From positions 2,542,001 to 2,606,000 of the forward strand of contig NC_079235.1 in the NCBI RefSeq assembly GCF_028502605.1: a DNA stretch of 64,000 bases, written 5' to 3'. The notes under the pieces were generated by a model. The model did not search any database. It was not told the DNA's origin and worked only from the letters and a program-made list of their open reading frames with translations. Position 1 is the first letter of the stretch; every line of letters starts with the position of its first letter. Origin of the DNA: Trichoderma breve. Taxonomy: Eukaryota; Ascomycota; Sordariomycetes; Hypocreales; Hypocreaceae. Of the stretch, positions 7,056 to 62,672 are shown in pieces. The position numbers and the translations under genes were made by a program.

Positions 7056-9129
7056 TCAAATAAACGAAAAGCGAATCTCCTCCCGCACCTTATCCGCCAA
7101 CTCCAGCGCCTCTCTCCTCCCATTTCTCGAGAAAACGTTGAAATAAGCCAAAAAGCTGTTGACTCCTGAGCTCGGATGCGGCACCTTCTGCCCACGTTTG
7201 ACGAGGCAACCACATCGGCTGATGTGTTTTGCAAGGTCAGGCCTGCGGGCTTTCAGCTCTGCACAGATATCGTCCGAATCAAAGATGCCTTGGCAAGAGG
7301 ATGGATAGTCGGCCGGAATAAAGACCATGACACATGTGTACTGAGCTCCATGTTTGAATGGCTGAGAAAGAGAGCGAGCGCGAGACTGATCCGCAACGGC
7401 GATGAGCATGGCTAACCCCCAATAGTCGACTCCGTACGTTGATTCAATGACCTGCGAGCCCGTCATACCGAGTGGACGCGGATTTATTTCAATGAGCCAA
7501 GCAGTGGGCTCTGGAGCTTCGGACACAGTGTCGCGAGGGTGTAAGTCGAGAACTCCATCCTGCGTTTCGTAGTCAACCGACGAGTACTCGACGCGGCCTT
7601 CCAGATGCATGATCCCGTTCTGCAGGCCGAGCTTGAGTAACGTATCCAGGAAGCTGTTGCGAAGCACATCGATTTCGCGAGCGGGCAGTGCCGATGGGTA
7701 TACGCTATTCAGCTCATGGAAGCTGTTGAGCGACCCGACGCTGGGACCGTTGAAGTCGGCGGTTTTGGGGAAATCGTCGCACGCCTCGAAGAAGAGGATT
7801 TCGCCGTCTAACAAGACGAAGTTTGCATCAACTTCCGGCCCCGAGCAATATTTCTCTATCACAAACTCGGACCCATGGCGAGATGTGTTAATGGATTTGA
7901 CGGCCGACGTGAGAGTATCAAGAGAATCAACGCGGAATACTCCCTCCGAGCTCCACCCATTGCATGGCTTGATGATAAGAGGGTAGGGAAGATTGTTTTT
8001 GCTGACAATCTCGAGAGCTTCGTCTGGACTAGATGCCTGATAAGCTTGGTGCCCTGCAAACACGCTTGTCAAATACTTGTTCGTAGCAATGCGCAGCGCA
8101 TCCGGTGAAGCAGTCTGAAGACCTAGCTGCTGCGCGGCTTGAGCAACCTGAGTCGCATAAGAGTCGCAGAACGTTACGATGCCGTCCACTGGTTTACCAT
8201 AAGTTTTCACAGATTTGATAATTCGATCGGTGAAACCCTCTTCTGGGGGGTCTGTTAGCTTGGTTGGAATAAATGCTTCACGCCAGTGTGCATATTCCGG
8301 CCCTTCTAACCAATGTCCCGAGTTGTCTAGAACCACCATGTTGATACCAAGGGCTGCGGCTGCGAGATAAAGGGACGGCGCTGTACTACCACCATTATCG
8401 GGGTGCGCGCGAGTCCCTTCTACCAACACCAATGTTCGACGTCGAATGTTCTCAGACGATATCCAGGGGAATGAGAGCCTATTCTCAAGCTCGGATTCGA
8501 CGGCGAGAGACAGTGCTTCAAGTTCATCGTCAGATTCTTTCTCAGAATCATGGTGCAAGATCAAGCCAGCTGCGGCAGCCGAGAAGAGTGCCACAAGGTT
8601 GCTGCTGTCTGAGGGCGTAATTGCTAAGCCGCTGTAGCTCTCGAGAGGCTCTGCAAAAGACACAGCTGTTTCCACGAATTGATAGTCCCTTAGACGCAAA
8701 GGGATTATGTCCGATCGCACGATATGTCCCTTCTGCAGAGGGACGATAAGCTTCACCACACGTCGAAGCCCGCCGGAGGATGCAGTCGTGGCGCGGAGAC
8801 ATTGGATGAAGAACTGAAACGCTCTGGCCGAGCCAAAAGATTCGGGCGAGATGCTCTGGCTCGAATTTTCATTTTCGATATGGATATCATACGCGCCCTC
8901 GAGGTTGTCAAAACGATAGGCTGAAGTTGACGAGTTAATGTGCTCGAGAACGATGTCCAGCGACTGCCAGAGGCTTTTATTGATTGGTTTGTTCAGGAGA
9001 CGCCATGAACATTCCAAAAGTAGCGCTATTGCATATTAGTGGAGGGGGTTATTGCAAGCTGAAGTACTCGTATGGACGTTGCCCACCTCCATCGCCTGTC
9101 GACCGAACATGAATCTTTTGAGAGGCCAT
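7056..9129 (-). CDS. ATP-grasp ligase, carnosine-synthase/peptide-ligase-like
   Basis: Two exons (9129-9087 and 9025-7056) give about 670 residues. The large exon lacks an in-frame ATG near its start. A 61-nt intron (GTGGGC donor, CACTAATA branch, AATAG acceptor) joins it to a 14-codon first exon. ATP-grasp features are clear: the nucleotide-binding lysine in PLIIKPCNGWSSEGV (about 361-377), the hinge segment FVIEKYCSGPEVDANF, the metal ligands around GIMHLEGRVEY, and EINPRPLGMTGSQV (about 527-540). An N-terminal domain of about 200 residues precedes a Rossmann-like pre-ATP-grasp part (TLVLVEGTR). The family forms amide bonds between a carboxylate (activated as acyl phosphate) and an amine. 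It sits divergently to a Zn2Cys6 regulator and may act in the neighbouring peptide pathway; that link is inference. The substrate is unknown. Confidence 0.88.
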
Positions 9130-10099: not shown

Positions 10100-11965
10100 A
10101 TGGTCCGCCCAGACAAGAGATGCGATGGGTGTTGGACATGTCGACTTCGCCGAAAAAAATGTGATGAAACACGACCTGAATGCGCCAATTGCACTGGGCT
10201 GCAAATTACTTGCCATTACGGCAGGCTAAAACCCGAATGGCTTGATGGGGCTGAGAAGCAGGAGGCTATGGCTGCCAAAATCAAGTCGCAGATTAAACAA
10301 CAAGCCGGCTATCGTCGAGAGAAACATCACGCTTCAGCAGTAGCCATGAGCTTTGCAGCAACAGCCCAGGAAAGAGAAGATTCCGAATTCGTCAATCTCT
10401 TCCCGAGACATGACCTCTCTTCAGATGAAGCGAGATCCCACATTGATGCCATGTGGCCAAATGCGACAACTACATTAGGAGGCGATGGCCAAGACTCGAT
10501 GGGGGTCGACCTGAGTAAACACGAAATTCCCGAGACTCTACCAGGATTCAACTTTGCATACAGTCCCCAGTTGGGGTCCAGGCCTGGCTCAGAGATACTC
10601 TCGTCCTGGGGAGAAGATGAGATGAATCATCTTATGAGATACTTGGACCATGTGTTTCCGTTTTTATTTCCATTCTACCGAACCAGTCTGCTTGATCCCG
10701 GACGAGGCTGGATCTTCCAACATATTGCACAGAGCAGGGTCTCTTTTCATTCAGTAATAGGTATAAGCGCCTATTTTTTCAGCGTTGCTCTAAGCGAAAA
10801 ATATTCAGGACGAGAGCATGAAATGTGCAAGACAGTAGTCTGGTCCAAACTCATACAACAAGCGGATATGTGTTTCGATATGTTGCAACAGGATATACAA
10901 GAGCTGAATGACCGGGGCGATGAAGCAAGCTTGTTAGATAAAGTTCGAGTCATGGAGAGTATTGTCCAGTTTCTCATTTTTGAGATGGCAGTAGGTAGGT
11001 CGGCAAACTGGGCCAATCATTTATCGCCTACCATCGCTCTCTTCCGAGGCATATTACAAAATCACGACCTGAACAACTCTATATCTCCATTAGTCGATAT
11101 TTTGAGTAAGATTGCTCAGCGTCCACTGTATGCCCTCAAGAAAGATCATTATGTTTGGGACAATAGACAAGAATGCTTTCGATTCTTCGCCGGCATTCTT
11201 CTCTTCATTGACACTATAGCGAGCACCTCTCTTAGACGGCCACCACAGCTACTGGAGTATCATCCACAGTTTCTTACCGATAAAGATGATGGAGAATACA
11301 TCAAGGGCGAGGCTCCCATCCGGCTATCTAGACTTGTTGGTTGTCACAATTGGGTTATTCGTGTCGTTGCAGAGATCTCGGCGTTGGATGTCTGGAAGAA
11401 AGAGAATATGAGAATGGGCAGCTTTGAGACAGAATTGGCTGAGCGTGCTCGCTACATTGATCAAATTCTTGAGGAGGGTATTTTACAGATGGACAATTAT
11501 TACGCCACCGATACAGGTATGTGACGCTCCGTTGATGCTAGTCGGCTGCATCATCATAATTTGTATCATATATCTGACATTTAGGCAGTAACATCGACAA
11601 GGATCTGGGCTTACGCGGCGAGAATATACCTTGCCGTAGTTGTCTCCGGCTGGCAGCCAATGTTGCTAGAGGTGCGGTCTGGTGTAGCACATGCGCTTCG
11701 TTTATTACAGACAGTAGTTGGTTCCTCGCACTTGCGAGTACTAGCTTGGCCGCTCTGCATCGCTGGTTGCATGGCTGAGCGCTCTCAAGAGCAAGCCTTT
11801 CAAAACCTCTTCTCTGAATTGGATAAGACTGCACTAATTGGGATATTGGGCGAGGCATTGCGAGTCATGGAGAGCGTGTGGCAAAATCGAGGAAACATAA
11901 GTAGTGAATCGTGGGATATAGAGGCATGCTTGAATATCCTTGGCACACCAGTTCTGCTAGCTTAG
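10100..11965 (+). CDS. Zn(II)2Cys6 transcription factor with fungal-specific TF domain
   Basis: Two exons (10100-11516 and 11589-11965) encode about 597 residues. The binuclear zinc cluster is at the N-terminus with spacing CDGCWTCRLRRKKC (8-21) then C-x5-CANC, with the basic patch RLRRKK inside. The rest matches the Fungal_trans_2-type activation domain, including a C-terminal block with HLRVLAWPLCIAGCMA. The intron (GTATGT donor at 11517, CTGAC branch) uses the second AG, GGCAG at 11588, because only that acceptor keeps the domain in frame (TVTSTRIWAYAARIYLA). The product should be a nuclear DNA-binding activator. Its position beside cluster-type enzymes makes it a candidate pathway-specific regulator. 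Convergent with the NmrA-like gene, with only 162 bp between stop codons. Confidence 0.92.
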
Positions 11966-12127
11966 GGGAATGCCAATCTGTATCATACTCAACAAGAAGA
12001 ATGAATTGTCAATATTCTAATGTATGAAGCTATCGCCGAACCACTGCAATCCTCGCACATAACCAAGGCAACACTTAATGACGGCCAGTGAAGAACTAGG
12101 TGGCTGTGAAATATCCATTCTTTCCAT

Positions 12128-13338
12128 CTATTTACCCTTCCAGAGGCCTACAACTTCTTCCACTGTGGTAGTTTTGACCTCGGGAAATACTTTGTTGAGA
12201 GATTTCTCATCCGGTGTATCAAACAAACCGGCGATGATGTATTGGCCGAATTTAGAGAAATACATCTGCAGGATGTGTTTTGGCAAATGTTTATACTCCG
12301 CAGCGTTAGAAGGCAGCTCACTGGCTTCACCCTTCTCGAGCTTCTCCAAACTATCATAGGTAACCTTGAACTTAGATCCTGATTTTTTATTTTCATTGTT
12401 AGTGTCTCGCAAAAAGCGATGTACCACATAGCGTCTAGAATGCCGGTGAGCTTACCGATAGCTTCTTCAAGCAATCCTAAAAACTGATTCAAGGTCACTT
12501 TATCACCGTAGCAAAACATTTCTTCCTCCCATTTAGGCAAAGTGAGTGCCTTGACAACAAAGTTAGCTACGTCTCGTGTATATGTAAATGAGACGAGATC
12601 GTTGCCAGTGCCAGGGATGACTGCCGCCTTGTTGGGAATATCAAAGATGAAACTGATTAGTTCCGAAATATGAGTCTCTATATATGGCATTCCATAATAG
12701 TCGAGGAAGTAGCCATTGTAGAATCGTGTCCATTCGAGATTGCTTTCGCGGAGTTGCTCGATCGAGGCGAGACGCACTTGATGTTGTAGTAAGCGTAGGC
12801 TTTTTGCACCCATCAGATCCATGTTAGCAAATTGCTATTGAAGTTAAAATTAAAACAACGGTATATACTCCAAAAGAAAAAGAAAAAGATGGTAGTTAAG
12901 AGTGCTTACTTTTCCTGAGGTATAGGTACACCCCATTCGCTCTGAATAAAACGCTTTGTTGGAGATGACTTTGCAGCTGCCTTTATGAGGTTCACTTCAG
13001 ACACTCCAGCTTCCGGCGCTATCACTTTAATGGCCGATATTACGGTGTGTACATTGTGCTCCTCCAAAATATTGGCTACCGCATCGATATCACCGTAGTC
13101 GACGTTGATCAGAGGAGGGGCGTTAGGGGACGAATCCGCAGAGGCCTTGCAATGCATTCATGTCAAAAAGAGACGCTTATTAACGCCATAGCAGCATGAA
13201 GCGAGTAGTCAGTGATAGGTGTTCACTTACCCCACGAGCAAGCAAGATGACTTTGTACTTCGCGGTGGCGACGAGGGCGTCACTGATAGTCCTACCAACG
13301 TTGCCCGTACCACCAGCGATTGCAATCGTAGTAGACAT
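12128..13338 (-). CDS. NmrA-like / isoflavone-reductase-like NAD(P)-binding protein
   Basis: Four exons (13338-13231, 13145-12910, 12799-12456, 12378-12128) give 312 residues. The N-terminus carries the dinucleotide-binding glycine motif GGTGNVGRT. Further conserved parts are VHTVISAIKVIAPEAG, the SEWGVPIP segment and the LEWTRFYNGYFLDYYGMP block typical of fungal NmrA-family reductases. For the second intron, AAAAAG ending at 12800 (after a GCTAAC branch) was chosen because it alone preserves phase and gives the family-like join PQENLRLLQHQ. The family includes redox sensors related to the nitrogen regulator NmrA and small-molecule reductases. No catalytic Lys assignment was attempted. As a cytosolic oxidoreductase or sensor it may belong to the surrounding gene cluster, which is inference. 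Confidence 0.87.
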
Positions 13339-14081
13339 GATGCTTTAGGATGAAACAACTTGCGGTGTTGTACAAAGTGCAATAGTTGAAAAGAAGTCGT
13401 AAATGGAAACGAATAACTGTATTGGAGAGATTGATGCTGGATTTGTTAGGCTACCGAAGCCGATCCGGTTCTTTATATACTTATTTCTCCTCCCAGAAAC
13501 CCCCATTAACGCTGTTCCCCTCAACATTACGAATAGGTTGCAATTTGTCATAACGTGCTCTATTTCGCTTGGCTCGGAGCTGTAACAATTTGATAATTGC
13601 CATGTATATCTGTGAATATCTGTGATTCTCCTAATTTGGCATGTCTCTTCTTTGCTAACCCCCATTGGGCGTACCGCGCGCGGAGCTAAGAAAGGGATAG
13701 GATAACGACCTTAAACCCTTTCCGGTCACCCGCGCGGCGAAACAGAATTGTCGTAGGATTATACAGGAACAGGAAAGGATCTAAGTAAAGGTATACAATT
13801 AACGAGAGTAGATAACAGTTACTAAAATATTGTATCAATAGTGTGGAGACTGTACCAATGAGCACGATGGCTCTCTGATAACCTGACGCCTTAATGGGCA
13901 ATGACAACACTGGTTACAAAAACTCATAAGTTTCTATGACATTGACTTTTCACATGAGCTATATCTCTCGTTTCAATAATATGACTACGTTCCGAATAAT
14001 AATTAAGGTGATTAACTGGGTTATAAAATTAGCATAGGTTACTATTTCCCCTATGTAGGTATGCCCCAGAAATTTTACCCA
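13339..14081. promoter_or_regulatory. Upstream region of the NmrA-like gene
   Basis: The stretch between the NmrA-like start codon and the end of the Tri14-like gene. A CCGCGCGCGG palindrome lies near 13674-13683 and a CCGCGCGG near 13731, in an otherwise A+T-rich region. Similar GC-rich blocks occur upstream of the regulator. Possible factor sites, not demonstrated. Confidence 0.35.
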
Positions 14082-15214
14082 TTACCAAGACTTGCGCTCC
14101 CAAGCCTTCACAAGCTCATCTACCTGTTCCGTGGCATCCACCATGAGAAATTTCTGCTTTGCCACTACAGATCTCGTGGGCTGGAAGAATTCAGTCAAAA
14201 AGTAGATTGTATGACCAACCTCAAAGCTGCCAGTGGTGTAGCCACCTTCTTTACTCAGGGTTTCATCCATAGGAACCAGGCCGAGATATTCAGCCGTCTT
14301 CCAGTTGTTTTTGCTCCCAATCACACGGTTACCGTAGAAGTCATCCGACCAAAGGATAACCTTGCCACCATATTTTGACGGCAACATTAGACCGTCTCCT
14401 CCGCCGGTGTAGTTAGTCGGGAATCCCTCCGGATGCACATAGGTCGGAACTCCCTTGGACTTGTTGATGTCAAAGGTTAATAGCCCCGGAGCAACTCGAT
14501 CGTTAATGACAATCTTGTCTCCCGACCGAACAATACCACCCGAAAGAAGAGTATCGTTGATATTTTTTGGCTCATACCATATTTGTGGCGTACCAGCCTT
14601 GTTAATCTTGACAATAATCTGGCCAAATGTTCCTATGACGTAGGTATTCCCTTGACCATCCTCTGCCATATCTTGGAAACCGGTGATCAGCTTTCCTGTT
14701 CGCTGGAATACTTGTCTCTGTAGCGGCACCAGGTCCGTTATCCAGCGAATTGTGCGGTCGTTGGTGTCATATTGAATCACACTGTTGGGGCCGGTGAAAT
14801 TTGCCAGCGCTGGGTTTCCAGAAGTTGTTGCTTCAAAGGCTGTGTACGAAGTAGCTGCAAAGTACATCGACCCCATTCCATCGTAGTCTATTCCGGTAAT
14901 GGAGTAGTCGTCATTGCCGGTGATTCCAGGTATAATGATCTCCTCATATTCATCACGATAAGGATCATAAACAGCAACCGAGGCATTGTAGTAGAGACTG
15001 CCATTTGTCAGATATAGACTTAAGGACAGAACAAGAGAGATAGAAGAATAGCATACCCAAAGTATATTTTGCAGTGCACCGGATCCCAATCCGCATTCTC
15101 TGGATAAAGGTCCAAAATAGTTGCATTGAAAGAACCTTTAAAAGGAGGACATGCGCCAACAACTGCACTCGCAAAATATGCCCAGATGAAAGGGCGTGAA
15201 GTTGATGTATACAT
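14082..15214 (-). CDS. Secreted Tri14-like beta-propeller-type protein
   Basis: Two exons (15214-15057 and 14997-14082) encode 357 residues. The N-terminus is a signal peptide (hydrophobic core FIWAYFASAVVGA) followed by CPPFKGSFNATILDLYPENA. The donor GTATGC, branch ATCTGACA and GGCAG acceptor give the join KIYFGLYYNASVAVYDPYR. Repeating strands such as YVIGTFGQIIVKI and GVPTYVHPEGFP suggest an SMP-30/propeller-like fold. The overall layout resembles the Tri14 family first known from trichothecene clusters, whose biochemical function is unsettled. The Tri14 assignment is recognition by pattern, not alignment. The product is predicted extracellular, with N-glycosylation sequons. It could act in peptide export, maturation or self-protection, which is speculative. 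Confidence 0.72.
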
Positions 15215-16619
15215 GATGAAGAATTTGATTATACCAATTCAAAAATTGCTGTCTAGTCGCCAAGAAGCCAATCAATAACTAGATGATCCAGCCAATTCAT
15301 TTCCTCCAGAATCCTACTCTTATATATATATATTAAACTGTACTTACACGAAGCTCTGATCAAAGCTGCGTACTCGTATGCATACCTAGGTGAGGGCTTA
15401 GACGAGGTTGAGCTGACAACTTCGTCACCACGGATATTCTTCTCTTAACTCCGGGCATTCTTTACCAGTATTATGCAATGTCCAATAATCATCTGTCAGC
15501 GTCCTCATCGCAGGCTGTGCAAATTTTATCCTTTTTTTCCATCTCCTATGTTAATAGCAGCGCTATGCTTCACGCCTTCTCTTTTTGAGGCTCATTCGTT
15601 AGTCTCTATTTGGGGTACAAAATACGGTGTAAATGTATCAGGAGGTATTGGTCATGCTTATTCATTTTAGATTTCATTTGAAACCACCACTTTTTGGCTT
15701 GCGACTACGGGTTTGGGGTTCGGTACTCCGAACAAGGCCGAAAATCGACAGCAGCGGAGGCACGATCGCGGATTGTATGTCTGCTAATGAAGAACGAAGA
15801 CTTATCGGACTCCCGGCTATTAGACGAACCCGTTATATCTGGAATCGGCGTCATGGAGCTATGCTTTGATCGAATCCGCCACGCCTTTGGAAGGCACTTT
15901 CACTGGGTCTTGAACATTTGGGAGTAACCTGATATACACTTTCATGTGCCTCTCTAAATCTACCAATCATCTATCAGGTATAGTGACCAATTGTAAATGA
16001 GGTATACGAAGCAACCTATAAGTATTTGCCTAGGCTGCAAGCTATTCATCTGTTCGTCTGTTAGCAGCTTTGCCCATCTCTCTGCTGACAGATTCGTTCT
16101 GCTATTTTAGATGAGCTCCGCCTTGATGGCTTGAGAATCTATAGCATATTGATTACTACGACGCTATTCCGGAATTAATATCTCCGCGCACGAAATCCAG
16201 AATTGACAGCACCAGAGTGGAACTATCGTTGTCTTAACATAAATACCTATAAGAGCATTCTAGGAAGCTTCTTGTTGAATCATGGTACGGGATTTATATC
16301 AACTATGGGTGGGACTGGGTGATGCTGATTCTACCGGCGATGCTAATTATTCAATGACATCGAAGGAGCAAGACCTGTCGAGATCAACTTACCAAAAAAA
16401 CCATATCAGATTACTAGACAAATACTCCTATCCTATTTGAAGCATGAGAAATTAAATCTCTATCTCTCTATGATATCGCTCATTGTGGAATGCAGCGACT
16501 CAAAGAGTTCGGCATCATTGTTGCCCGAGCCGATGCACAATAATGTGCTACTGAGCATCATCATCAATTTGCCAAAAGATCGTTTCTAAATAAGTGTTGA
16601 AGTATATTCAAAAATACTC
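15215..16619. other. Intergenic, no supported gene
   Basis: About 1.4 kb with short open frames on the plus strand (15.47-15.93 kb) that lack motif, start context or splice support. I see no RNA gene or mobile element remnant. Confidence 0.5.
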
Positions 16620-17571
16620 TCAGCTAAAATAATCCCCTCCTTTAATCATCTCTTCGACAAACTTGAAGCTTGCAGATACAGCTTCTTGAGTTCCATATCC
16701 TTTAGCTAAGTGTGCCGCGATCACCGCTATGATAGGATTAGTTTCTTATTATCTGAATTATAGCAGGTGAGCTCCAATTACTTACGAGGGATGGAATAAC
16801 TTGCTCCAAACAGCTTTTTAGGGTTCTCAAAACGAGATGCCACTATAAGAGGCTCTTCACCGCCGCACAAAACAAAATGCAATGTCGTCATCCCATCGGT
16901 CTCCTCAAACATCTCTCTTTTAATAATAACATACTCGGGCCCTAAACTTTGTAGGGTATTTGCCATTGATTGTACGTCCTGAATACTTTTTGGATAGTCG
17001 ACCGGGATGCCGGCCTCATCCAACAGTGCTTTGACTTCAGGAACTGTTGCAGAAAGGACCTTTACTGATGGAAGTATTTCTTTCCTGAGTGCCGTAACTG
17101 CTTCTTGTTTTGGGGCAGGGCCTGTTTTGAAGAATAATTCAGCATCCAGAACTGTCATTAAATGTTCACTTTGCTGTAAAGTTCTGGCCACAATTCTGAT
17201 TGACTCTGCAGAAAACAAAGCTCCTATAATCACAGATGTCAGGTTTGCAACATTTAGCAGTTTGTATATATGATTATTACTAACCGATCTTGACCACTTT
17301 GCAGTCTATCTTGCGAAGAGCATCACCTGTCTCATTTATAAGGTCTTCGAGCGCTGTTGCAGTAATATCTACAGGCTCCTCTCCATTTCGTATAGCTGAG
17401 CCAGCAGAAACTGTTATAACGGGCACTCCCTGTGCTGTGATTGCCCTTTCGTCAGCTTTCAGGCCTCTGTTGATATCAGCTCCAATTCCCGAAAAGAAAA
17501 GCGTGTGTAGAAACCTACGAGTTCACCAACTCATCTGAGCATCCAAAGACTAACACGCCACCAGGTTGCAT
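16620..17571 (-). CDS. ThiD-like (phosphomethylpyrimidine kinase family) protein, first exon junction apparently broken
   Basis: Recognisable parts in order: MQPGGVLVFGCSD (from 17571), SGIGADINRGLKADERAITA to KVVKIG (17492-17285), the main exon (17223-16786) and a last exon (16726-16620) ending EEMIKGGDYFS. Introns at 17284-17224 and 16785-16727 are canonical. Together they would make a near full-length ribokinase-fold ThiD-type kinase, which phosphorylates hydroxymethylpyrimidine phosphate in thiamine synthesis. The first two parts are in different frames, separated by about 40 nt containing stops. No GT-AG intron of normal size restores the frame there: the pyrimidine tract ends in TTTTCG where AG would be expected. 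The usual GTGC anion-hole motif near the C-terminus is also absent (GASYSIPP instead). It may be a pseudogene, or use a non-canonical acceptor or another start. Confidence 0.6.
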
Positions 17572-18273
17572 TATTTCAATATTATATTTAAAATTGTTAT
17601 ATGTAGTGCCTCGTGTAACAAATTTTCTATGAAAAGTAAAGCAGCCAACAGGGTGCGCAAGAATGGGATGACATGCTGAGGTATCTACGGGTAAGCCAAG
17701 TCCTTAAAATGTCTTTGGGCTTTTATGGCCTAAAAACACGGCACCGTTGGACCGAGTCATTTAGGCGTCCAGGGTGCGGGAATAAGAATCCATGTTGATC
17801 CTTTTGCTAGCCTGTCTGCTAGATTGGCCCGCGATGTAACACATACGGCTATTAATATGGTGCATGCGAGTTCTGAAACATGGGACCAGCCTATGAGCTA
17901 TCGTATTGGATAGCACAAACAGACCTTTTGAATAGTGTGGCCGTTGAGCCAACACACAGTAGCTTTACTTGAATGTCCAGAGCGTTGAGATATGATTAAC
18001 CTATAAAACCTTAAAATAGACAAGTATAAATTATTGTGCTAAGTAGCATCAGGATGCGTCTTTAGGTGTTTATAGGTATTTATGTCTCAATGAAATGCAA
18101 TTGCCCTGAAGCTCAATGGAAGCCTAACACTTGATATACACCAGCTGGCTAGCTACGGTATTGATAACAAATTGTGTGTCCAGCTTGGAATATACTCAAG
18201 GCCATATAAACAGATGGATACACAGTATATTATTCCAGAAAAACTGCCCGATCATCCTTTCCTCACCCTGAGC
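17572..18273. other. Intergenic, no supported gene
   Basis: About 0.7 kb of mostly A+T-rich sequence between the ThiD-like gene and the 3' end of the peptide precursor. Nothing recognisable. Confidence 0.5.
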
Positions 18274-18847
18274 CTAGCCGTGTGAAATGATGGCATTTGA
18301 GTTCTCAATACACTTATTGTGACGCCTATAATTTATTTTTAATATGTCAGTAGATGATTGCACAGTCTTAATGAACAAGTATCCACGTACAGCATCTTCA
18401 GGAGTTGCTCCGGGATAGAAACATGACACTCCTGTATCAGTAGTGACGCAGCCTTCCTGTAGCTTAGAGCCCCTGCCATATGCCTCAATATCTGCACTTG
18501 TGTAGGTGCAGTAAATGCCCTCCTCCGCTTGCTCACATTGTGACTCAAGAATGGCGCGTTTCGCAGTGACACCATCGCGGAGCTTGATTGCAAATGCCCA
18601 GTACTCACGAGCAGCAATATCAGCTTCAGGTGCACGCTTCTCCTTTGCCGAGTCATCGCGGAGCTTAATAGCAAAGGCCCAGTACTCACGGGGAGACATT
18701 TTGATGGGCTTCGCCAACAGAGTTAGCCATGTATACTTTTACCAAATTTGCTCTGTTAGACATTACCCCGAGTTCATTGATAGGATGGGGAGCAGCAAGA
18801 CTGCTTGCAATCAAGAAGGCACTGGCGACGGCGCTGGTGAACAACAT
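18274..18847 (-). CDS. Secreted precursor with duplicated REYWAFAIKLRD peptide and Kex2-type sites (candidate RiPP precursor)
   Basis: Two exons (18847-18767 and 18708-18274) encode 171 residues. The 58-nt intron (GTAATG donor, GCTAAC branch, GCGAAG acceptor) joins exactly in phase. Residues 1-19 are a signal peptide ending SSLAA. REYWAFAIKLRD occurs at 34-45 and again, identical, at 61-72. Each copy is followed within a few residues by Lys-Arg (51-52 and 77-78), the Golgi Kex2 cleavage signal, and the second unit starts APEADIAA. The remaining part has Cys 85, 94, 114, 123 and 160 and no known domain. Signal peptide plus repeated Tyr-containing core plus KR sites is the layout of dikaritin (ustiloxin-type) precursors. 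Two UstYa-like genes follow at 21.5 and 23.3 kb. Alternatives are a pheromone-like or other Kex2-processed peptide, or an effector. A GGATAAAAG box about 125 bp upstream could be the TATA element. Confidence 0.8.
18574..18690 (-). repeat. Two in-gene copies of the 36-nt core-peptide repeat, 81-nt period
   Basis: Copies at 18690-18655 and 18609-18574 encode the same 12 residues. They differ at only three of 36 positions, and all three are silent third-codon changes. This pattern indicates selection on the peptide rather than recent DNA duplication alone. Confidence 0.92.
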
Positions 18848-21470
18848 GGCGATGGATGGATGCTCACGAGTAGAGGAAGTAGAAGATATGGTAGAAGACA
18901 ACGACTGAGATAATTCTTAATGTTAGGTCAAAAGTAGAAGTCAAAGTGAAGGAATGTTACGTCTTTTATCCTTGGTTCAAGATCTCATCATTCAGCCGAT
19001 GCCCTAGTTCAGAGGTACAGTACGGAGTATACAACAGCTAGACACGACTACCTATCCATTCCCTTCCCTCTTTCAACTTTGCACACCTACTTACACATCG
19101 TTTTCCGAACCACGGAGGAGTGCTTCGTAGTTGGGTATCAAGCCCTAATTTTGGAGATAGGCCGCGTTTCCCGTGAACATGCCTCTGTCTAGCTGTTAGT
19201 ACTGAGAGCGGATTTCCGTGATGACCACCAGACCAAATTTGATGTTCTTACTTGTGTCCAGACTTCTTAGTGGTGACTGTAACCTCCGCTCTGAAGCAAA
19301 AGTTCGCTACAAACCCATGCAGAACTCGATGAGGAGTCACTGTGATCCTCAATCCTTGCGCCGAGTCAGCTGCCGATGAGCCGACAGCCTCCGCACCACC
19401 CCGGATTGTGGTCATTCCGATCCATCTAACCGCCTTACCAGTTTATCTTTCGTGTAATTTTGGACCCCAATGCTACATCTGTTGCCGCCCGGAATCGAGA
19501 TGGAACCAACCATGGGTTACAATGCCGGGGTGGATCTGCGTCAGGCCCCCTGTGGCTCGCCTCACATGTGCGTCGCTCCTAAAGGAAGATGCAAGCCATC
19601 AACCGTGCATGAGATAAACTCGCAGGATTGTCATTTAATCAGCATAGGGCAGGAAGCGTGGCTGGTTACGGATCCTTGGCTCAGATCTGACTTCTGACGT
19701 CGCTTGGCCTCATCGTGATGATTGGAGGCTTGCTGCCGATCTGCTTTTATTCTTATGCCACACCTTGCCACACTGACTAGCAAATCCTTTTGCAACAACA
19801 AGTCTTTACCTTTTTATTGGCCGCAGTCATTGAGTCGGCTATAATTGACCGTTTCCATTATTAGGAAGATACAGGTATCTTAGTAACCCGTATCATTGAC
19901 CTCTGGCGCTGCTGTTGGTCGCTATCCCTGCAAGTGACTTAGAAGCTGCCTTTTTGGCTTCAAGATCATGCAGTTGGTAGCAACAATCACCAAGTCTATC
20001 CATTCCGCTTGCATTAGGGGGACATCGGCCTGTCTAGCCTAATTCACTATCTCGCCGAGAAGTTGATGCCTCATTACAGGTACCATTCTGCACCTCGGTC
20101 AATACAGAGAAACCGTCGAGCTACACCAAATCCTAGAGTTTGTTGGACAGAGCTGCAAGGCACGCGATACTACCATAACTGAACAGCTTAGCAAGCCGAA
20201 CAGCGCTAATAAGCGCTTATCTATTGACGCGGGGCTATGATCCATTCCCCTGTTTAACACTCATCGTCTTTGTTCCATCCGATCCATAACTCTTGGTAAG
20301 TTCTGTTGTCCAAACTGACTCAAGTCATCTTGCATGCAAGACACGTTGCTAATGATGCTGGTTGATTTGGTTTCGACGGCAGGTAGTAAGTTGGATACAT
20401 GGCCACCTGAACATTTCTTTTTTGTCTATTCCACCACAAGTGTAGCAACCGCAGCAACTACAGGTATCTATATTTAGTGGGTTCGAATGGATTCTGAAGT
20501 CGCGGTTAAGCTTCCCACCTGTCTTTGCCTCAGTACATTCCTCCTGATCTTGAGAAGAGATACATGCAGGAATACGCAAACAAGACCACTCGTTCAAATA
20601 AATGACGCATGGAACTTTTGCAATTAGAAATCCTTTTTTATTTGCGCGAGTTTACTCGCCATCTATTGATGCCAGGATTGCGCTTCCTGGAGGAGGATCT
20701 ATGGTGGCAATCAACATTTACATGGATATGGCGGCACAGAAGATCAAGACGTCTGACTCTGCTTGGTAGCCAATCCTAGGAGAAGACTTGATCCATCGCT
20801 TGTAAAACTAGCCAATGATACCAAAAGAACTGATATTGTTGGTGATGTTGGTCATTGACACGAAGAGCCGCCAGGTTATCCAGCCCTAGTTACTTTCGAC
20901 AACTTGCAAGCCGAGGGATCTTTTCACATATGATCAACAAGGGTATGAGTATGACTTGAGTATCCATCGGGGAATAGACTATTGGACTGTTGGACTGGTA
21001 CTATAAAGACATCACAAGGATCATGACACCCCGTTGTATCTTCAAAAGTTCCATATACTATCTCTAAGTTCCACCGACCTTGACAAAAATAGTAATGTCC
21101 TAGGTAAACCAATCTTCATCCATTTGGCGGGGGATTGGACGAGAAGTTTGGGGTCCGCTCATTCAGAGTTTGCTCTGTCTCCTGGCGATCGCGCTCCTTG
21201 CCTCGTTGTATAGGTATGGTTGGATATGCCTCGTATGTTGTCGCGGGGATTTGACTTACGGAGTTCATATTCCGACTTCAGATGCTTGCCCAACTTATTC
21301 TAAGATCCCAACAGGTCTCCATCAACATCCCCATCATTTCTTTTTGTCTTTGACATTTTCCCTTCAGTCATTCTTCATTGTGCCTCATATTCTTCTTCAA
21401 TCACATATTCGCTAAAGAATCCTCTCTAGCTCCTTTTACTTCTGTAGATTCAATCCGACCCCCTTTTCCA
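18848..21470. other. Intergenic, 2.6 kb without supported gene
   Basis: This holds the precursor promoter on the left and the UstYa promoter on the right. Open frames near 19.34-19.70 kb and 20.35-20.60 kb have cysteines but no signal peptide, splice support or recognised domain. A TACGGAGTAT motif lies at 19021-19030. Confidence 0.5.
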
Positions 21471-22628
21471 ATGTTAGGGCACAAGGAGTATGACTACTCT
21501 TCCGTAGAGGGAGAAGAAGAAGAGGCCTTCCTAAGCAATGGTACTTCCGAGAGAAATGAGAGACAACCGTTGCCATTGACAAGGTCAAAGCTCTCCTGGT
21601 TGCTATATGCCACCGTAACGGTAACCTCGCTTCTTACAGGAATTGTCATTGGTTACAATTCTCGAAGAGGAACAGTTGAGAAAGGTCTTACGTTTGCAGA
21701 CACCTCTCACCTCAGACTCTGTAAGAACCTCTTGTCCAAATGTCCCGCTCACAAGGCTAAGATTTTAGACAACGGAATAAATTTTGAGACGCACGAGCAA
21801 CGATTCAATGGTTCGCTGTTCAAAAGAAGTGCATACAGTGGCCCTCCAACTCCCGAGATGGATCAAACCTGGGGTCGCTTCACTGAAGCTGGCAGTAGTA
21901 TGTTGGTCAAAATAACTGAAGGTCCGCTATTCTGCTCTCCAGCATCCTTTCTGACTACCTTTGGATCCAGAAACAATGCCAGACTATCCTCCAGTGCTGA
22001 ATATTTCGACAGAAGATGCGCGAGCATCCACAAGCTATCCACTCAAGACGGCAGTTCATCTCAATGAGACACAAAACATCGGCTATATGGCCAGTTTGGG
22101 ATTTTTCCATCAAATTCACTGCCTTGTCAGTCTATTTCATTTTAATGGGACTATAGCAGCAAATGCTGATCCTTTGCCGATATAGAACATGCTTCGGAAG
22201 TTCATCTATCTCGATTATTACAAAGAGACCCAGCCCGATTGGTACACACAGCCATATCTACAAGGCCATGCAGGTGAGAAAGCATTTTGCATGTCACATT
22301 CCACTTCCGATTAACAGAAACAATTATGGCTAGATCACTGCGTCGATATGCTGCGCGAATCCATCATGTGTCACGGCGATACTACCCTGATCGTGTACCA
22401 CTGGATCAATGGTTATGCTGATCCAGTACCCGATTTCAGTACTATGGTAAGACTTTAGCCATGGCCAAGGCACAGCTTACTGGTTTCTAAAGGTGCATAA
22501 CTAACTTCATCTGACAGCATACTTGCCGGGATCCGGAGGCTATCTTAGATTGGATGCAAACGAACCAAATCATACTCAAGGAAGCAGTTTATAAACATGG
22601 AGAAATGGATCTTCCTGAAATATTTTGA
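21471..22628 (+). CDS. UstYa-like (DUF3328) oxidase, copy 1
   Basis: Five exons (21471-21897, 21971-22125, 22186-22273, 22334-22446, 22518-22628) give 297 residues. After an acidic cytosolic tail a single membrane helix (LLYATVTVTSLLTGIVIGY, about 45-63) anchors the protein. The luminal part carries both family signatures: FHQIHCLNMLRKF and, about 30 residues later, HADHCVDMLRESIMCHGD. The paired HxxHC motifs are the putative metal-binding active site of UstYa proteins, which catalyse oxidative cyclisation, hydroxylation or halogenation on RiPP and other substrates. All introns have consensus ends; the second follows the HQIHCL codons in phase 0. The start is the ATG just before GHKEYDYSSVEGEEEE, a typical UstYa N-terminus. 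Together with the precursor at 18.3 kb and a second UstYa at 23.3 kb this suggests peptide modification in the secretory pathway. Confidence 0.92.
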
Positions 22629-23342
22629 AGTAAAGTGTTAGAGTAGTAAAATTGGACTAAGCTCGAAGATGTATCTAAAAGATGAAGGATGTAAAAATGA
22701 ACATCAAAGTGTTGGATCTGCATAACCAGAATCACCTTTGCTAAATTTAATGTGTTTTTGAGGACCATCTGTAAGGTAATGACTTTATGTTCCATGTACG
22801 GAGTATTATCTGTAAAGTCGAAAGATGATCAAACTAACGATGTCCAAAACTCGGCATCTTTGCATATAGACATTGTCGACGTCGCCCAAAAGCAGACGTT
22901 GATCGTCCGTGTTAAAGATGCTATTCTTAGTACAGGGGGAACTGCAAGCCGAGATGCCTAATGTGATATAATCTGGACTAGCAAGGTCCATCGTCTGGAA
23001 TCACAAGACGATTTTGGCTTATGCCGTACTACCCGTATGCATGTTGGTGACGCATGCTCAGCCGTACAATGCATCCCATTTACTCTCCGCCTTCCTTCGC
23101 CCTAAAGGATAAACCATTGAGATTCCAATGGTACTTTTTCCAACAATGTGCAGGGATATTAACGCCTCACAAGATTGGCCTAAAGTGCACGAATAGTATA
23201 AGGCGCGCAAACACTTTCCCGGCCATCCTACAGCAATCCTATACACGAAGGCATATTCCTTGGCTCGCCGGTTCTCGTTTCAATAAACAAAGCAAAATTC
23301 CAACGATAAGATCTCAAATCGTAATCCCAATTTCCTAGCAAT
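22629..23342. other. Intergenic between the two UstYa-like genes
   Basis: Promoter space of the second UstYa-like gene. It contains TACGGAGTAT at 22797-22806. No gene is seen. Confidence 0.5.
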
Positions 23343-24282
23343 ATGCATTGGCCGAGTTGGTTTCGATTGACTACCGATGACTCAGTTCCCAAATACCAAC
23401 ACATTGCATGGTCTGAGTTCGCTTTCGATAATGCATCTACTCAATGGAAGCAGCGATTCTACGTATTATGCAGCGTCTACATTGTGACTGTTTTTATTTT
23501 TATAGCCGGCTTTCTATTCAAATCACCTAGCGTTGCTGAGATATACGAAACACTAAGAACTGATGCTATCTTTGGTACCAGTAAGTCAAGTGTCTTCAAG
23601 ATGGCTAGCTGATAACTAATTCAAGACATAGTTCCAAGAGAGCAAGTTCTATTCACACCAAATCAGACATATCATGATATATTTCGAGATCCTTTGGTAC
23701 CTGAATCAGATAACCTGACACTCTGGGATGCACTGCAGCCGCGTATGTCATCGCTTGTGAAATGCCATATCCCCTCCTCATATCAAAACCTTCTTCCTTG
23801 CCTTTGGCAAACACTAATTAAACATCATGTTCCACGTAGGAGGTGGAGGATTTATTATCATTCCAGATCCACAAAAATATGGCCTCTCCGGCGGGCTTCC
23901 TTTGGAAGACGAGGATGATGGAATTGTGCGAGAAGGATACGGCATATCAATGTTTCACCAAATACACTGCCTAGTAAGTCGCGGGCTCGCAGGTTCACGG
24001 GTGAATGATCACAAATCTAATCGCAACGAAAAAAAGGTAGCAATCAGGACCGCCTTTCGAACAAAGAATTTTGACGACGATCATCTGAATCACTGTTTCG
24101 AATACCTCCGCCAATCAATAATGTGCACGGGAGATACAACTCTAGAGAAGGTCGTTGTCGACGAAAATGAAGTACTCAAGCCGGATATTGATGGTTGGGG
24201 CACTGCACATGAATGCAAAAGCTGGAATATGCTTTATGAGTTTGCTGAGAGCAGGCGGGTGAAGGTAATAGGTGACTTATAG
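23343..24282 (+). CDS. UstYa-like (DUF3328) oxidase, copy 2
   Basis: Four exons (23343-23580, 23632-23742, 23840-23973, 24037-24282) give 242 residues. A membrane helix (VLCSVYIVTVFIFIAGFLF, about 41-59) follows a short N-terminal tail with a tryptophan-rich start. The luminal domain shows YHDIFRDPLVPESDNLTLWD, the GGGFIIIPDPQKYGL strand, FHQIHCLVAIR and HLNHCFEYLRQSIMCTGD, the double HxxHC signature of the family. The third intron (63 nt) lies right after HQIHCL in phase 0, the same place as in copy 1. It contains no in-frame stop, so unspliced mRNA would still be readable. UstYa enzymes often act in pairs on one peptide precursor, which fits the context. Tandem on the plus strand with copy 1. 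Confidence 0.92.
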
Positions 24283-25835
24283 GGACTTTGCCATATGTCC
24301 GAACACTCTGTGGGAGCATTGAAGAATGCCTAATTTGTGTTAACTTGAGATCTTTTGGGCAATTTCCCTTTAACGCCGTAACTCGTTTGCCGTTGTAATA
24401 TTCGTTTCGACAGGTCGTCCAAGGTTCTCGCATCACGGTGCAGATGATTCCGAACGCTACCAATAGAGAACTTTTAGTACCACCCACCGTTAGATTATAG
24501 ACTAAAGTGGTATCTTTCGGCAGTTGGTAATATGTGCTGAAACAAGTGTCGGTTCCGAATCATCGGCATTTGTTTATGGTGGAGCGCTACAACAAAGATG
24601 GCAGAAAACATACATGTACCTGTAAGTACATAGGTAGTTAAAGAAACCACATGTTTATCGCCGCAGTGCAAGCAGCTCCAGTTTTAAGCGACGACTGGCT
24701 CTGTCAGTAAACTGAATCTGCAAGCTATTGGTAAATTCGTGGTCATCGTTCCCCGTTGAAAATTGCGTGTTACACAAATAGCGGTGTGGCAATGGGTAAT
24801 ATACATTGAAGATTAACGAGATGTGCCTCGCCATTCTTAAACGGCAAACCATACCATAATAAGGGACGCAACCTTCTTTAATTCTCTTTATTTCATATGA
24901 TGTCTCAGTCTCTCCAATTAAGTTTCTTCTTTGACAGAGTACTGGGCAGTGAAACGGGTGTGGTCGGGTTTCTTTCATCACGATCGAGGGGAACACCGTT
25001 CTTCGTATGATCACTTCTTTACTGTAGTCAACTTTCTCGGCATCTCACCTGTCATAGTTGATTTAGGCTTGTTCGATCATTTCATGGCGGAAAGCAACAG
25101 GCTGCCATGATACATGACAATTCCAGCGTTGAGTTCTCGCCTGTACACTACATATGTGGCCTGTGACCATCATGAGATAACTGAAGGAGGAAATCCCCAA
25201 CATTATAAAGATCCTTGTTTAAATATATTGTAAGTTCCGCAGTAATTACCCATAACGACATCATATGATCTTGGGTAGTCCAGCTTAATGGAGCCGCATC
25301 CATTTTCATGAGCTAATGCACAATGCATGCTTGGGGCTGCCTCGCTTAGGATACGATGCCTAAATCAATACCCATGTGAAGCCCCAAGTTGAACAACATT
25401 CACCTCAACGACAAAATCTCATCGATATGTAAATGGACCGTATAGTAAGTGGTGGCTCTAATGAATCCATATGGAGACAGTAATATTACACCCTATAGGA
25501 CAGCTCGCCTTTACGTTAATAACCGAAATGGGGACAGCAAAGTTTCGCATCTCTGTCTTACTGGGCTGTGAGTAGAAGTCTATCGTCAGCTATTACCGGG
25601 AGACCGCCTATACGCATGAACTCGTATCAGCTACCACAAGCGCTCTGAAGGATGGTAGAGAAGTCCCTATGGGTCTGATGACCTATGTAGGATGAGCTGC
25701 AGCTCTATGTCTTTTTACATCAATTGCGAGCGTGAGTAGGCAATACATGTATATAAACACCACTCCACATAACTACAAGTAGGAAGTTTTAAGTCTTCTT
25801 TAACCATTCTGCTTCTATCATAGTATGTGCCAACC
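24283..25835. other. Intergenic, 1.5 kb without supported gene
   Basis: Includes the promoter of the flavin oxidase. TACATGTACCTGTA is present at 24611-24624. An open frame of 119 codons on the minus strand (24.66-25.01 kb) has no motif or splice evidence. Confidence 0.5.
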
Positions 25836-27671
25836 ATGTATTGTGCGGCAGCCTTCTTTTTCGCTACACAGCTTCTCAGTCCAGTCATCGGGGCACAAAA
25901 TGCTGCCACAACCAACTTTACTTGTCAACCAGGCCAGCCTTGCTGGTCTACGATCGCACAGTGGCAGGCCTTCAACCAGACTATAGCAGGGCGTCTGAAG
26001 ATTACAACAATGCTTGCCAGCCCCTGCTTCCCAAGCTCCCCAAACTTCAACGACACCGAGTGCGCCGATATTCGCCAAAATTATACCAGTGCTCAATTTC
26101 GGGGGACTGTATATGGCGCCATGGACATAACTCAATGGGAAGCCTGTGGTTCGGCGAATTGCTATCCTGGCTTTCTTCAGCCTCAGAGGCCGACGTGTGC
26201 GCTGGGAAGACTGTCTGCACTTTATGTCGATGCCGAAGAGCCTGCGGATGTCACGGCCACTCTCGGATTCGTGAGACGTCATGGGATCCGTCTCGTTGTG
26301 AAGAACACTGGCCACGATGTTCTAGGACGCAGTGCTGCTGCCAATACTTTGGCTCTTCGTGTCTATAATCTCAAAAACATGTCGTTTCATTCTTCTTTTA
26401 CTGCCCGCAACTGCTCTACCTCCAACAGACAAAACGTGGGTGTAATCGGAGCTGGTGTCAGTGCAGAAGACGCTGTTGCATTCTTTAGCAAGCAAGGCAT
26501 GATGGTCACGGTTGGTGGGTGTCCTTCTGTTGGCATTGCTGGAGGGTTTGGCCAAGGCGGCGGCCATGGCCCTCTTGCTCCCAGTGTCGGGCTGATGGCT
26601 GATCAAGCAATCGAGTTTGATGTCGTTACCATGGACGGAGTATTCCGTACAATTAACAAATGCAACGCCCCTGATCTATTTTGGGCAATGCGTGGCGGCG
26701 GAGGGCAATCATACGCAATTCTGATCAACTACAAGTTTCAGCTACACCCTCAAGTGGCATGGGCAAACTGGCGATTGGAGGCCACTCTCACTCCTCCCAC
26801 GGATAACATAACCCAGAATACGCTCCTGCGCGACATCCTTACAACTTTAGCCGATCAACAGATTACATGGTCTGAGAATCGTATCGCTGGCTATAATGGT
26901 ATTTCTCCAACATCGCTCTCGATGATGGAAATGCTACCAGGCGGTGAGAAGCCGTTACAAACACTGCAATCGGTAACTGCATCTTTTCGCAGCCTCATCA
27001 CCAACCTTCCCGGTGTGAATATTACCTTGGATTCATACGCATCGTATCCTGATCAGAACGCCTTCTATATCGGCAACACAGAATACTGGAACTACCTTTC
27101 AGCCGTTGGGGTTTCACTCATAACCACCAGTCGTCTCATCACTAAAGACAACTTCGAGTCGCCGAGAAAAGTGAACTCATTGGTTACCAGCACCCTGAAG
27201 GCCATGCAAAAGGTGGTTGACCAGCTTGGAGCGCAACTGGCACCACAGGTACAGTTTCAGTTCCTAACATCCGTACCTAGCAATACTCCAGATTCAGACC
27301 AGGAGACAAGTGTGAACCCTGCCTGGCGAGACGCGCTATGGCATTTCGTTTCTTCAGCTGCATGGTCTCCAGATACACCGGATGCAATTGCTATGCAAAT
27401 CACCGCAGCAGCCCGAGCGGCCTTGGATATTATCAAGGAGCCTCTTGCTGTTCAGGCTGCATACCTGAACGAGGCTGATCCTGAGGAGCCGGATTGGCAA
27501 CATATTTTCTTCGGAAAGCACTATTCCAAGTTGCTTCAAATAAAGCGAAAGTGGGATCCAGACACTTTACTTAACTGCAAAAAGTGTGTAGGCTATCTTG
27601 GACCTCGAGATCCAATGTATTCTTGCGATGGAGATGCTCCGAATCCCTCGGTCCCATATCCATTCACATGA
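25836..27671 (+). CDS. Secreted FAD-linked oxidase, berberine-bridge-enzyme (BBE) type
   Basis: An intronless gene of 611 codons; the ATG at 25836 is preferred over an upstream GTG. The signal peptide is about residues 1-19 (YCAAAFFFATQLLSPVIGA). The PCMH-type FAD domain shows LVVKNTGHDVLGRS, with a histidine at about 160 at the usual 8-alpha attachment site. It also shows GGCPSVGIAGGFGQGGGHG, with a cysteine at about 229 at the 6-S-cysteinyl site, so a bicovalent flavin is likely. The BBE C-terminal domain ends with DWQHIFFGKHYSKLLQIKRK and CKKCVGYLG. Such enzymes oxidise alcohols, amines or phenolic rings using oxygen. Placement downstream of two UstYa genes on the same strand suggests an added oxidation on the same product. 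The substrate cannot be told from sequence. Confidence 0.93.
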   Translation: MYCAAAFFFATQLLSPVIGAQNAATTNFTCQPGQPCWSTIAQWQAFNQTIAGRLKITTMLASPCFPSSPNFNDTECADIRQNYTSAQFRGTVYGAMDITQWEACGSANCYPGFLQPQRPTCALGRLSALYVDAEEPADVTATLGFVRRHGIRLVVKNTGHDVLGRSAAANTLALRVYNLKNMSFHSSFTARNCSTSNRQNVGVIGAGVSAEDAVAFFSKQGMMVTVGGCPSVGIAGGFGQGGGHGPLAPSVGLMADQAIEFDVVTMDGVFRTINKCNAPDLFWAMRGGGGQSYAILINYKFQLHPQVAWANWRLEATLTPPTDNITQNTLLRDILTTLADQQITWSENRIAGYNGISPTSLSMMEMLPGGEKPLQTLQSVTASFRSLITNLPGVNITLDSYASYPDQNAFYIGNTEYWNYLSAVGVSLITTSRLITKDNFESPRKVNSLVTSTLKAMQKVVDQLGAQLAPQVQFQFLTSVPSNTPDSDQETSVNPAWRDALWHFVSSAAWSPDTPDAIAMQITAAARAALDIIKEPLAVQAAYLNEADPEEPDWQHIFFGKHYSKLLQIKRKWDPDTLLNCKKCVGYLGPRDPMYSCDGDAPNPSVPYPFT

Positions 27672-27974: not shown

Positions 27975-28082
27975 TGACGGGTGTGGGATTCGAACCCACG
28001 CCTCTTGCGAGATGCGAAATCCTTTTGAAGGATCAAGATATTATCTTGAGTCGCACGTGTTAGACCACTCCACCAACCCGCC
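27975..28082 (-). tRNA. tRNA-Leu (anticodon CAA) with intron
   Basis: The acceptor stem pairs GGCGGGT with ACCCGTC (one G-U pair), then discriminator A. The D-arm region starts TGGTGGAGTGGTC, the anticodon stem is TGCGA/TCGCA, and the T arm contains GGTTCGAATCC. A long variable arm (TCTCGCAAGAG) is typical of Leu. The anticodon loop reads CT-CAA-G and is then interrupted by about 26 nt (28044-28019), an intron at the canonical position after base 37. Fungal tRNA-Leu(CAA) genes are usually intron-bearing, which agrees. It lies immediately right of the putative biosynthetic cluster. Confidence 0.95.
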
Positions 28083-46349: not shown

Positions 46350-46410
46350 GGTTGATGGTTACGCCGAGGAACGCCTGATGACGTCCCAGACCATCTCACG
46401 AGGGTAACTC

Positions 46411-46457
46411 TGCTATTGCTGTAGCTGTAGCTGTTGCTGTAGCTGTTACTATTGCTG
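46411..46457. repeat. Imperfect (GCTGTA/GCTGTT)n hexamer repeat
   Basis: About six imperfect units of GCTGTA, GCTGTT or GCTATT lie immediately upstream of the patatin gene, probably in its promoter or 5' UTR. Confidence 0.8.
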
Positions 46458-62600: not shown

Positions 62601-62672
62601 GACCTTTGCATCCTCTCAACCTCACTCCGTCGCCTTTGACGGCCCCCCCTCACACAGTCACATCTTCTCAGA

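What the first reader, a model, noticed from the sequence alone, without database searches (positions are those of the whole stretch)
7056..27671. Possible new UstYa-type peptide biosynthetic gene cluster
Within about 20 kb lie a Kex2-type precursor, two UstYa-like oxidases, a secreted BBE flavin oxidase, an ATP-grasp ligase, a Zn2Cys6 regulator, an NmrA-like reductase and a Tri14-like secreted protein. I see no tyrosinase, methyltransferase, S41 peptidase or flavin monooxygenase of the ustiloxin set. The tailoring would therefore differ from classical dikaritins: UstYa pair plus flavin oxidase, perhaps plus ATP-grasp ligation.
Basis: inference. Interest (0 to 1): 0.88.

Follow-up and report, generated by a model that had tools for sequence, protein, structure and literature searches.

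The report
Conserved four-gene fungal peptide cassette
A Trichoderma genome carries a small gene set, shared with insect-infecting and other fungi, that probably makes a secreted, chemically cross-linked peptide; it resembles known fungal peptide pathways but has an unusual two-copy precursor and a kinase-like partner that seems to have lost its kinase residues.

Summary
The best-supported unit is four genes (window 16620-24282): a secreted precursor with two copies of REYWAFAIKLR plus a conserved four-Cys tail, two UstYa-family oxidases, and a ThiD/pyridoxal-kinase-family protein whose GTGC motif reads G(A/V/L)SY in the window and in all 7 relatives found. Locus tags and read-through gene models place these genes side by side in Beauveria (all four), Cordyceps and Coleophoma, so the cassette spans two fungal classes. 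ATP-grasp, Zn2Cys6, NmrA and Tri14-like relatives occur in Trichoderma species that gave no precursor or UstYa hit, were not seen in those other carriers in the lists returned, and look unlinked in two Trichoderma genomes; they are optional neighbours at most. BBE is the best extra candidate. Likely mechanism: Kex2 release, then UstYa oxidation (cross-linking) of Y/W/F in the core; the chemistry is inferred, not shown. Two published surveys of Kex2-repeat proteins required at least three repeats and so should miss this family. New variant of the dikaritin/UstYa RiPP kind; the pseudokinase and the conserved Cys tail are the unexpected parts.

The parts
18314..18847 (-). Precursor gene (exons 18847-18767, 18708-18391, 18325-18314): signal-like N-terminus, two copies of REYWAFAIKLR (residues 34-44, 61-71), KR sites at 51 and 77, tail with 4 Cys (85, 94, 114, 123); 136 aa
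   Evidence: only match in its genome; 15 relatives plus 4 read-through models
21471..22628 (+). UstYa1 oxidase (6 exons, 281 aa; HQIHC and HADHC motifs); model corrected after comparison with Trichoderma proteins
23343..24282 (+). UstYa2 oxidase (exons 23343-23580, 23632-23742, 23840-23973, 24037-24282; HQIHC and HLNHC motifs), 242 aa
16620..17571 (-).
25836..27671 (+). BBE-type flavin oxidase, 611 aa; Trichoderma-level companion (possible member)
14082..15214 (-). Tri14/Mal s 1-like protein (357 aa); neighbour, membership not supported
12128..13338 (-). NmrA-like NAD(P)-binding protein (312 aa); neighbour, membership uncertain
10100..11965 (+). Zn2Cys6 regulator (Zn_clus, Fungal_trans_2); neighbour, possible local regulator
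7056..9129 (-). ATP-grasp ligase (670 aa; PF18130 + PF13535); neighbour, membership not supported

Best explanation
A compact UstYa-type RiPP cassette of four genes (kinase-like, precursor, UstYa1, UstYa2). The precursor enters the secretory pathway; Kex2 cuts at the two KR sites and releases two peptides with the same REYWAFAIKLR core and a four-Cys tail (inferred from sequence). The two UstYa oxidases, probably acting as a pair, oxidise and most likely cross-link aromatic side chains (Y, W, F) of the core (inferred from the family). The kinase-like protein belongs to the ThiD family but has lost the GTGC motif, so it probably binds or regulates rather than phosphorylates (inferred). In Trichoderma a BBE oxidase next door may add a tailoring step.
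For: Neighbouring locus tags: B. bassiana ACQRIU_003524 (UstYa1+UstYa2) and _003525 (precursor+kinase), all four genes; Coleophoma crateriformis BP5796_12456 (precursor) and _12457 (UstYa1+kinase); C. cylindrospora BP6252_09581 (UstYa2) and _09583 (UstYa1+kinase); Cordyceps militaris CCM_01011 (precursor) and CCM_01012 (UstYa1). Four gene models join precursor and kinase (three Beauveria, C. fumosorosea), three join UstYa1 and UstYa2 (Beauveria), two join UstYa1 and kinase (Coleophoma). Precursor followed by kinase on one strand, and UstYa1 followed by UstYa2 on one strand, is also the order in the window. Core: 35 of 40 copies in 20 precursors match REYWAFA[IF]KxR; against C. crateriformis the cores are 22/22 identical, residues 1-33 19/33, spacer 1 7/15. 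UstYa motifs intact. GTGC reads G[AVL]SYSIP in the window and 7 of 7 relatives, while another PF08543 gene of the same genome keeps HGTGC. DUF3328 genes accompany 1758 of 7878 KEP genes, at 3.09 genes on average (PMC7329392 section 7).
Against: No chemistry, expression or mutant data. Only two repeats, and the tail is conserved too (37/44 C. crateriformis, 35/44 B. brongniartii), so the tail could be the product. Adjacency rests on locus tags and gene models, not on DNA of the other genomes. Purpureocillium takamizusanense has a precursor hit but no UstYa hit. In Coleophoma UstYa1 and kinase share a strand, unlike the window. Relatives were collected by shared words, which favours conserved cores.
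Confidence: 0.72

Rival explanations
1. The nine-gene, 20-kb region is one biosynthetic cluster, with ATP-grasp, BBE, NmrA, Tri14-like and the regulator all in the pathway.
For: Contiguity in the window; T. guizhouense NmrA A0O28_0032360 and UstYa2 A0O28_0032400 have near tags; equal listed contig lengths suggest one contig for UstYa1, UstYa2, ATP-grasp and BBE in T. barbatum, UstYa1, UstYa2 and BBE in T. chlorosporum (UstYa2 V8C35DRAFT_293788, BBE _293793), precursor, BBE and TF in T. compactum, and UstYa1, NmrA and TF in T. camerunense. These contigs are 0.6-2.3 Mb, so this shows loose linkage only.
Against: No NmrA or Tri14-like hit from Beauveria, Cordyceps or Coleophoma among all 72 hits, and no ATP-grasp, BBE or TF hit from them among the 120 listed of 158. 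ATP-grasp and Tri14-like genes have distant tags in T. asperellum (TrAFT101_004842/_011608) and T. virens FT-333 (TrVFT333_011149/_003421). T. velutinum shows ATP-grasp, TF, NmrA, Tri14-like and BBE with one contig length (2917755) and gave no precursor or UstYa hit of its own, though 90% clustering may hide one.
Confidence: 0.17
2. The conserved four-Cys tail is the main product (a small secreted protein with two CX8C units) and the two REYWAFAIKLR copies are pro-peptides.
For: The tail is nearly as conserved as the core; all 19 relatives but P0002 hold at least four Cys; AlphaFold gives the tail beta strands at block means 55-73 while most of the rest is below 50.
Against: Two near-identical cores followed by KR sites, and conserved UstYa genes whose studied substrates are short Kex2-released cores. 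The tail has no Pfam match and no credible PDB match.
Confidence: 0.2
3. A linear peptide signal (pheromone-like) whose gene lies next to UstYa genes by chance.
For: The precursor layout resembles alpha-pheromone precursors (recalled); the core is conserved across two fungal classes.
Against: UstYa adjacency repeats in Cordyceps, Beauveria and Coleophoma; pheromone KEP genes are, with three exceptions, not accompanied by DUF3328 genes (PMC7329392 abstract).
Confidence: 0.06

Closest known systems
Asperipin-2a cluster (aprA/aprY/aprT/aprR)
   Same: Small gene set, repeated-core precursor, UstYa-family oxidase, no tyrosinase among its four genes; its isoflavone-reductase-type AprR recalls the NmrA-like neighbour (PMC6514808 passages)
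   Different: One UstYa gene, core FYYTGY, a transporter; no kinase-family gene or Cys-rich tail in the passages read
Ustiloxin/phomopsin clusters (dikaritins)
   Same: Signal-peptide precursor, KR-flanked cores, UstYa proteins
   Different: 16 or 8 repeats, YAIG core in ustiloxin, tyrosinase, methyltransferase, S41 peptidases (PMC6514808 passages); here two repeats and no tyrosinase or S41 match in the window
Epichloecyclins and victorin
   Same: Multi-core precursors thought to be Kex2-processed, then cyclised (PMC9233826 passages)
   Different: Other cores and partners; the word kinase does not occur in that review
ThiD / pyridoxal kinase family
   Same: Sequence and fold
   Different: GTGC motif lost in window and 7 of 7 relatives; the SGGAGIQAD loop is altered in window and 6 of 7, unreadable in P0123

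Membership tests
Dikaritin / UstYa-type RiPP | Secreted precursor with repeated cores between Kex2 sites | tested here: met
   Two copies, KR after each in the window; fewer copies than ustA or phomA. Signal peptide judged by eye.
Dikaritin / UstYa-type RiPP | UstYa/DUF3328 oxidase gene(s) at the locus | tested here: met
   Two PF11807 genes within 5.5 kb of the precursor, both with HxxHC motifs, neighbours in other genera
Dikaritin / UstYa-type RiPP | Core peptide oxidatively cross-linked | not testable with these tools
   Core holds Y, W and F; needs mass spectrometry
Ustiloxin/phomopsin subgroup | Tyrosinase and S41 peptidase in the cluster | tested here: not met
   No PF00264 or PF03572 match in the window
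Published KEP definitions (Umemura 2020; Le Marquer 2019) | At least three repeats between Kex2 sites | tested here: not met
   No more than two copies in window and 19 relatives; thresholds read in PMC7329392 section 13 and PMC6339444 section 24
ThiD/PdxK kinases | GTGC-type catalytic motif (its role is recalled) | tested here: not met
   G[AVL]SYSIP in window and 7 of 7 relatives; solved ThiD/THI20 relatives show GTGC or GAGC at that place

The most novel reading that the evidence does not exclude
A previously undescribed family of fungal RiPP loci, spread over two classes, whose precursor yields both a UstYa-modified REYWAFA(I/F)KLR peptide and a folded four-Cys protein, and which depends on a dedicated ThiD-fold pseudokinase that binds the peptide or its precursor (chaperone, sensor or self-protection). 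The near-invariant core would point to one conserved target or receptor rather than an arms-race toxin.
Probability: 0.3. Interest if true: 0.78.

Novelty: new variant of a known kind. Interest (0 to 1): 0.58.

Why it matters
Repeated sequences of Kex2-repeat proteins are reported as highly diverse (PMC7329392 abstract), yet this core is almost unchanged between Trichoderma, Cordyceps, Beauveria and Coleophoma. That makes a conserved biological role directly testable. The locus shows that surveys demanding three or more repeats can miss UstYa precursors, and it offers a small two-oxidase system without a tyrosinase at the locus. A conserved kinase-family protein beside such a precursor was not found in what I searched (of I saw 15 of 27 papers, none with the kinase term) and would be a new kind of RiPP accessory protein.

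Tried and rejected
ATP-grasp ligation as a core step: unsupported, because relatives of this ligase occur in T. asperellum, T. viride, T. evansii, Stachybotrys and Aspergillus, and no held paper has both UstYa and ATP-grasp. Shared promoter motif: TACGGAGTA occurs at 19021 (174 bp before the precursor start) and 22797, and with one mismatch at 21257; within the window 22 matches with up to one mismatch against 7.8 expected, but the word has 1460 copies genome-wide against 356 for the reversed word and was picked after looking. Among eight upstream regions two 9-mers were shared by three regions and no 10-mer by three. Kept only as a lead. Kinase gene as a broken gene: a first look suggested a stop, but a GT-AG intron gives an open frame that aligns with Coleophoma. 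One search listed no Trichoderma kinase: the 259-aa window protein is below that search's length range (0.55 of 490), so this is not evidence of absence. PDB search with the precursor profile: best E 0.28, taken as chance. NCBIfam: no family for the T. virens precursor; the B. bassiana kinase model reaches 67 of 205 bits for HMP-P kinase. AlphaFold models are weak (mean pLDDT 51.7 and 52.6); no functional site was read from them. Literature: none of 12 locus-tag or core strings occurs in a held paper. PMC12142624 (12 of 15 passages seen) lists BBA_00090 among fungal-RiPP cluster genes; BBA_00078 is our UstYa2 relative, but whether both lie in one cluster is not stated. PMC7303927 and PMC10334655 passages held nothing on this locus. 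PMC7099791 kept 222 candidate precursors from T. harzianum (section 7); that list is in a supplement I could not open, so this precursor may be among them.

Limits: hits are representatives of 90%-identity clusters, so a species missing from a list may be hidden; one search scored 7999 candidates and listed 120 of 158 hits. The listed contig figure is a length, so 'same contig' is inferred from equal lengths. P0002 (T. harzianum) lacks 15 tail residues, probably a gene-model effect. The BBE test of linkage is weak for that reason.
Full report
What is there. The window is G000 contig C4:2542001-2606000 of an assembly of 38.5 Mb in 9 contigs. Stretches of UstYa1, UstYa2, NmrA, Tri14-like, BBE and TF match Trichoderma proteins at 96-100% (T. 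camerunense, T. harzianum, T. breve), so the source is a Trichoderma; the species is not settled. The precursor is 18847-18314(-): 136 aa, signal-like N-terminus, two copies of REYWAFAIKLR, KR after each, and a tail with four Cys. Its two matches in the genome are its own exons. UstYa1 (21471-22628) and UstYa2 (23343-24282) keep HxxHC motifs and are 29% identical over 102 residues. The genome gave 46 UstYa exon matches, a lower bound, which merge into 19 places at under 5 kb spacing.

Between the Tri14-like gene and the precursor lies a PF08543 (phosphomethylpyrimidine/pyridoxal kinase family) gene at 17571-16620(-), 259 aa, four exons, open frame. Its nearest solved relatives are ThiD-family proteins. 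A model of the B. bassiana read-through protein matches ThiD and pyridoxal kinases by fold; block means are 54-91 for residues 221-410 but mostly below 50 before that. GTGC or GAGC in the solved relatives is GASY in the window and G[AVL]SYSIP in 7 of 7 relatives. The other clear PF08543 gene of the genome, on C8, reads HGTGC. The loop SGGAGIQAD is altered to forms such as QTSGLQAD in the window and 6 of 7 relatives; P0123 cannot be read there. That GTGC is catalytic is recalled knowledge. I read this as a conserved pseudokinase; altered chemistry is not excluded.

Does it hold together elsewhere? No fungal genome other than G000 could be searched, so I used locus tags and gene models. The precursor has 15 relatives at E <= 0.001 among 48 candidates: Trichoderma (three), Coleophoma crateriformis, Purpureocillium takamizusanense, Beauveria brongniartii, Cordyceps militaris, and eight unnamed entries. 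Two joined queries gave the partners: all 72 hits listed; 120 of 158 listed. B. bassiana ACQRIU_003524/_003525 covers all four genes; C. crateriformis BP5796_12456/_12457 covers precursor, UstYa1 and kinase; C. cylindrospora BP6252_09581/_09583 covers UstYa2, UstYa1 and kinase; C. militaris CCM_01011/_01012 covers precursor and UstYa1. Gene models run from one gene into the next: UstYa1 into kinase in two Coleophoma (P0040, P0041), UstYa1 into UstYa2 in three Beauveria (P0016-P0018), precursor into kinase in three Beauveria and one Cordyceps (P0130, P0134, P0139, P0146). The last two arrangements match the window's own order and strands; the Coleophoma one does not. Cordyceps and Trichoderma are Sordariomycetes (Hypocreales), Coleophoma is Leotiomycetes (Helotiales). 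Against this, Purpureocillium gave no UstYa hit.

Which neighbours belong? NmrA and Tri14-like hits come from Trichoderma (including T. asperellum and T. evansii, and for NmrA T. viride and T. gamsii, which gave no precursor or UstYa hit) and from other fungi, none from Beauveria, Cordyceps or Coleophoma. ATP-grasp relatives are widespread (Trichoderma, Stachybotrys, Aspergillus, Arthroderma). T. aggressivum has ATP-grasp Triagg1_4850 and NmrA _4852, T. harzianum has NmrA THARTR1_05870 and TF _05871, and T. velutinum has five of the neighbours with one contig length and no precursor or UstYa hit of its own: they look like a Trichoderma block of their own. T. guizhouense NmrA and UstYa2 have near tags, and contig lengths in T. 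barbatum, T. chlorosporum, T. compactum and T. camerunense are compatible with linkage of some neighbours to the cassette. BBE is the best extra candidate, but T. longibrachiatum, T. citrinoviride, T. ghanense and T. novae-zelandiae also have BBE relatives at 73-75%.

Sequence constraint. Across 20 precursors (window, 15 hits, 4 read-through models) 35 of 40 core copies fit REYWAFA[IF]KxR; the misses are one copy each in P0010, P0013, P0015 and both in P0011, whose tail looks frame-shifted (T. compactum). No precursor has more than two copies. Against C. crateriformis the cores are 22/22 identical, the tail 37/44, residues 1-33 19/33, spacer 1 7/15; against B. brongniartii each core is 10/11 and the tail 35/44. 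Core and tail are both constrained. The tail holds two CX8C units (C85-C94, C114-C123) and is modelled with strands at modest confidence; no Pfam, NCBIfam or credible PDB relative was found.

Mechanism. Shown: gene content, motifs, conservation, adjacency by tags and gene models. Inferred: secretion, Kex2 cleavage at KR, a possible extra cut at the single R before EYW, UstYa cross-linking of aromatic residues, a non-catalytic role of the kinase-like protein. Published knowledge used: Kex2 and UstYa roles in ustiloxin, asperipin and phomopsin (PMC6514808 passages; PMC9233826 passages); DUF3328 genes beside 1758 of 7878 KEP genes (PMC7329392 section 7).

Novelty. Two large KEP surveys required three or more repeats (PMC7329392 section 13; PMC6339444 section 24), so by their rules this family falls out; their supplements could not be opened. 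The Trichoderma RiPP survey PMC7099791 (outline, term passages, sections 7 and 10) names no such core in its main text, but its 222 T. harzianum candidates were not seen. Searches for UstYa with ATP-grasp, for locus tags and core strings, for the kinase name with UstYa terms, and for Trichoderma with Kex2 and UstY terms gave no description of this locus in what was listed. Most subscription papers are not held. I therefore call it a new variant of the UstYa-type RiPP kind.

Noticed in passing
window 19021, 21257, 22797; genome G000: The 9-mer TACGGAGTA has 1460 copies in the genome against 356 for the reversed word and sits upstream of the precursor and UstYa2; function unknown.
   Followed up: partly
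window 27975-28082 (-): A tRNA found by Rfam but not by ARAGORN with the bacterial code lies just after the BBE gene, at the edge of the region.
   Followed up: no
window 30406-32847 (+) and 36239-38416 (-): An NPHP3_N/ankyrin-repeat gene and a HET-domain gene lie to the right of the region.
   Followed up: no
P0011 (Trichoderma compactum): The precursor model lacks its signal part and its tail reads differently, so the gene may be decaying in that species.
   Followed up: no
G000:C3:3507025-3515387: Eight UstYa exon matches within about 8 kb, a denser UstYa group than the one studied here.
   Followed up: no
window 12001-26000: G+C is 42-47% in 2-kb steps here against 43-58%, mostly above 49%, in 44001-64000.
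   Followed up: no
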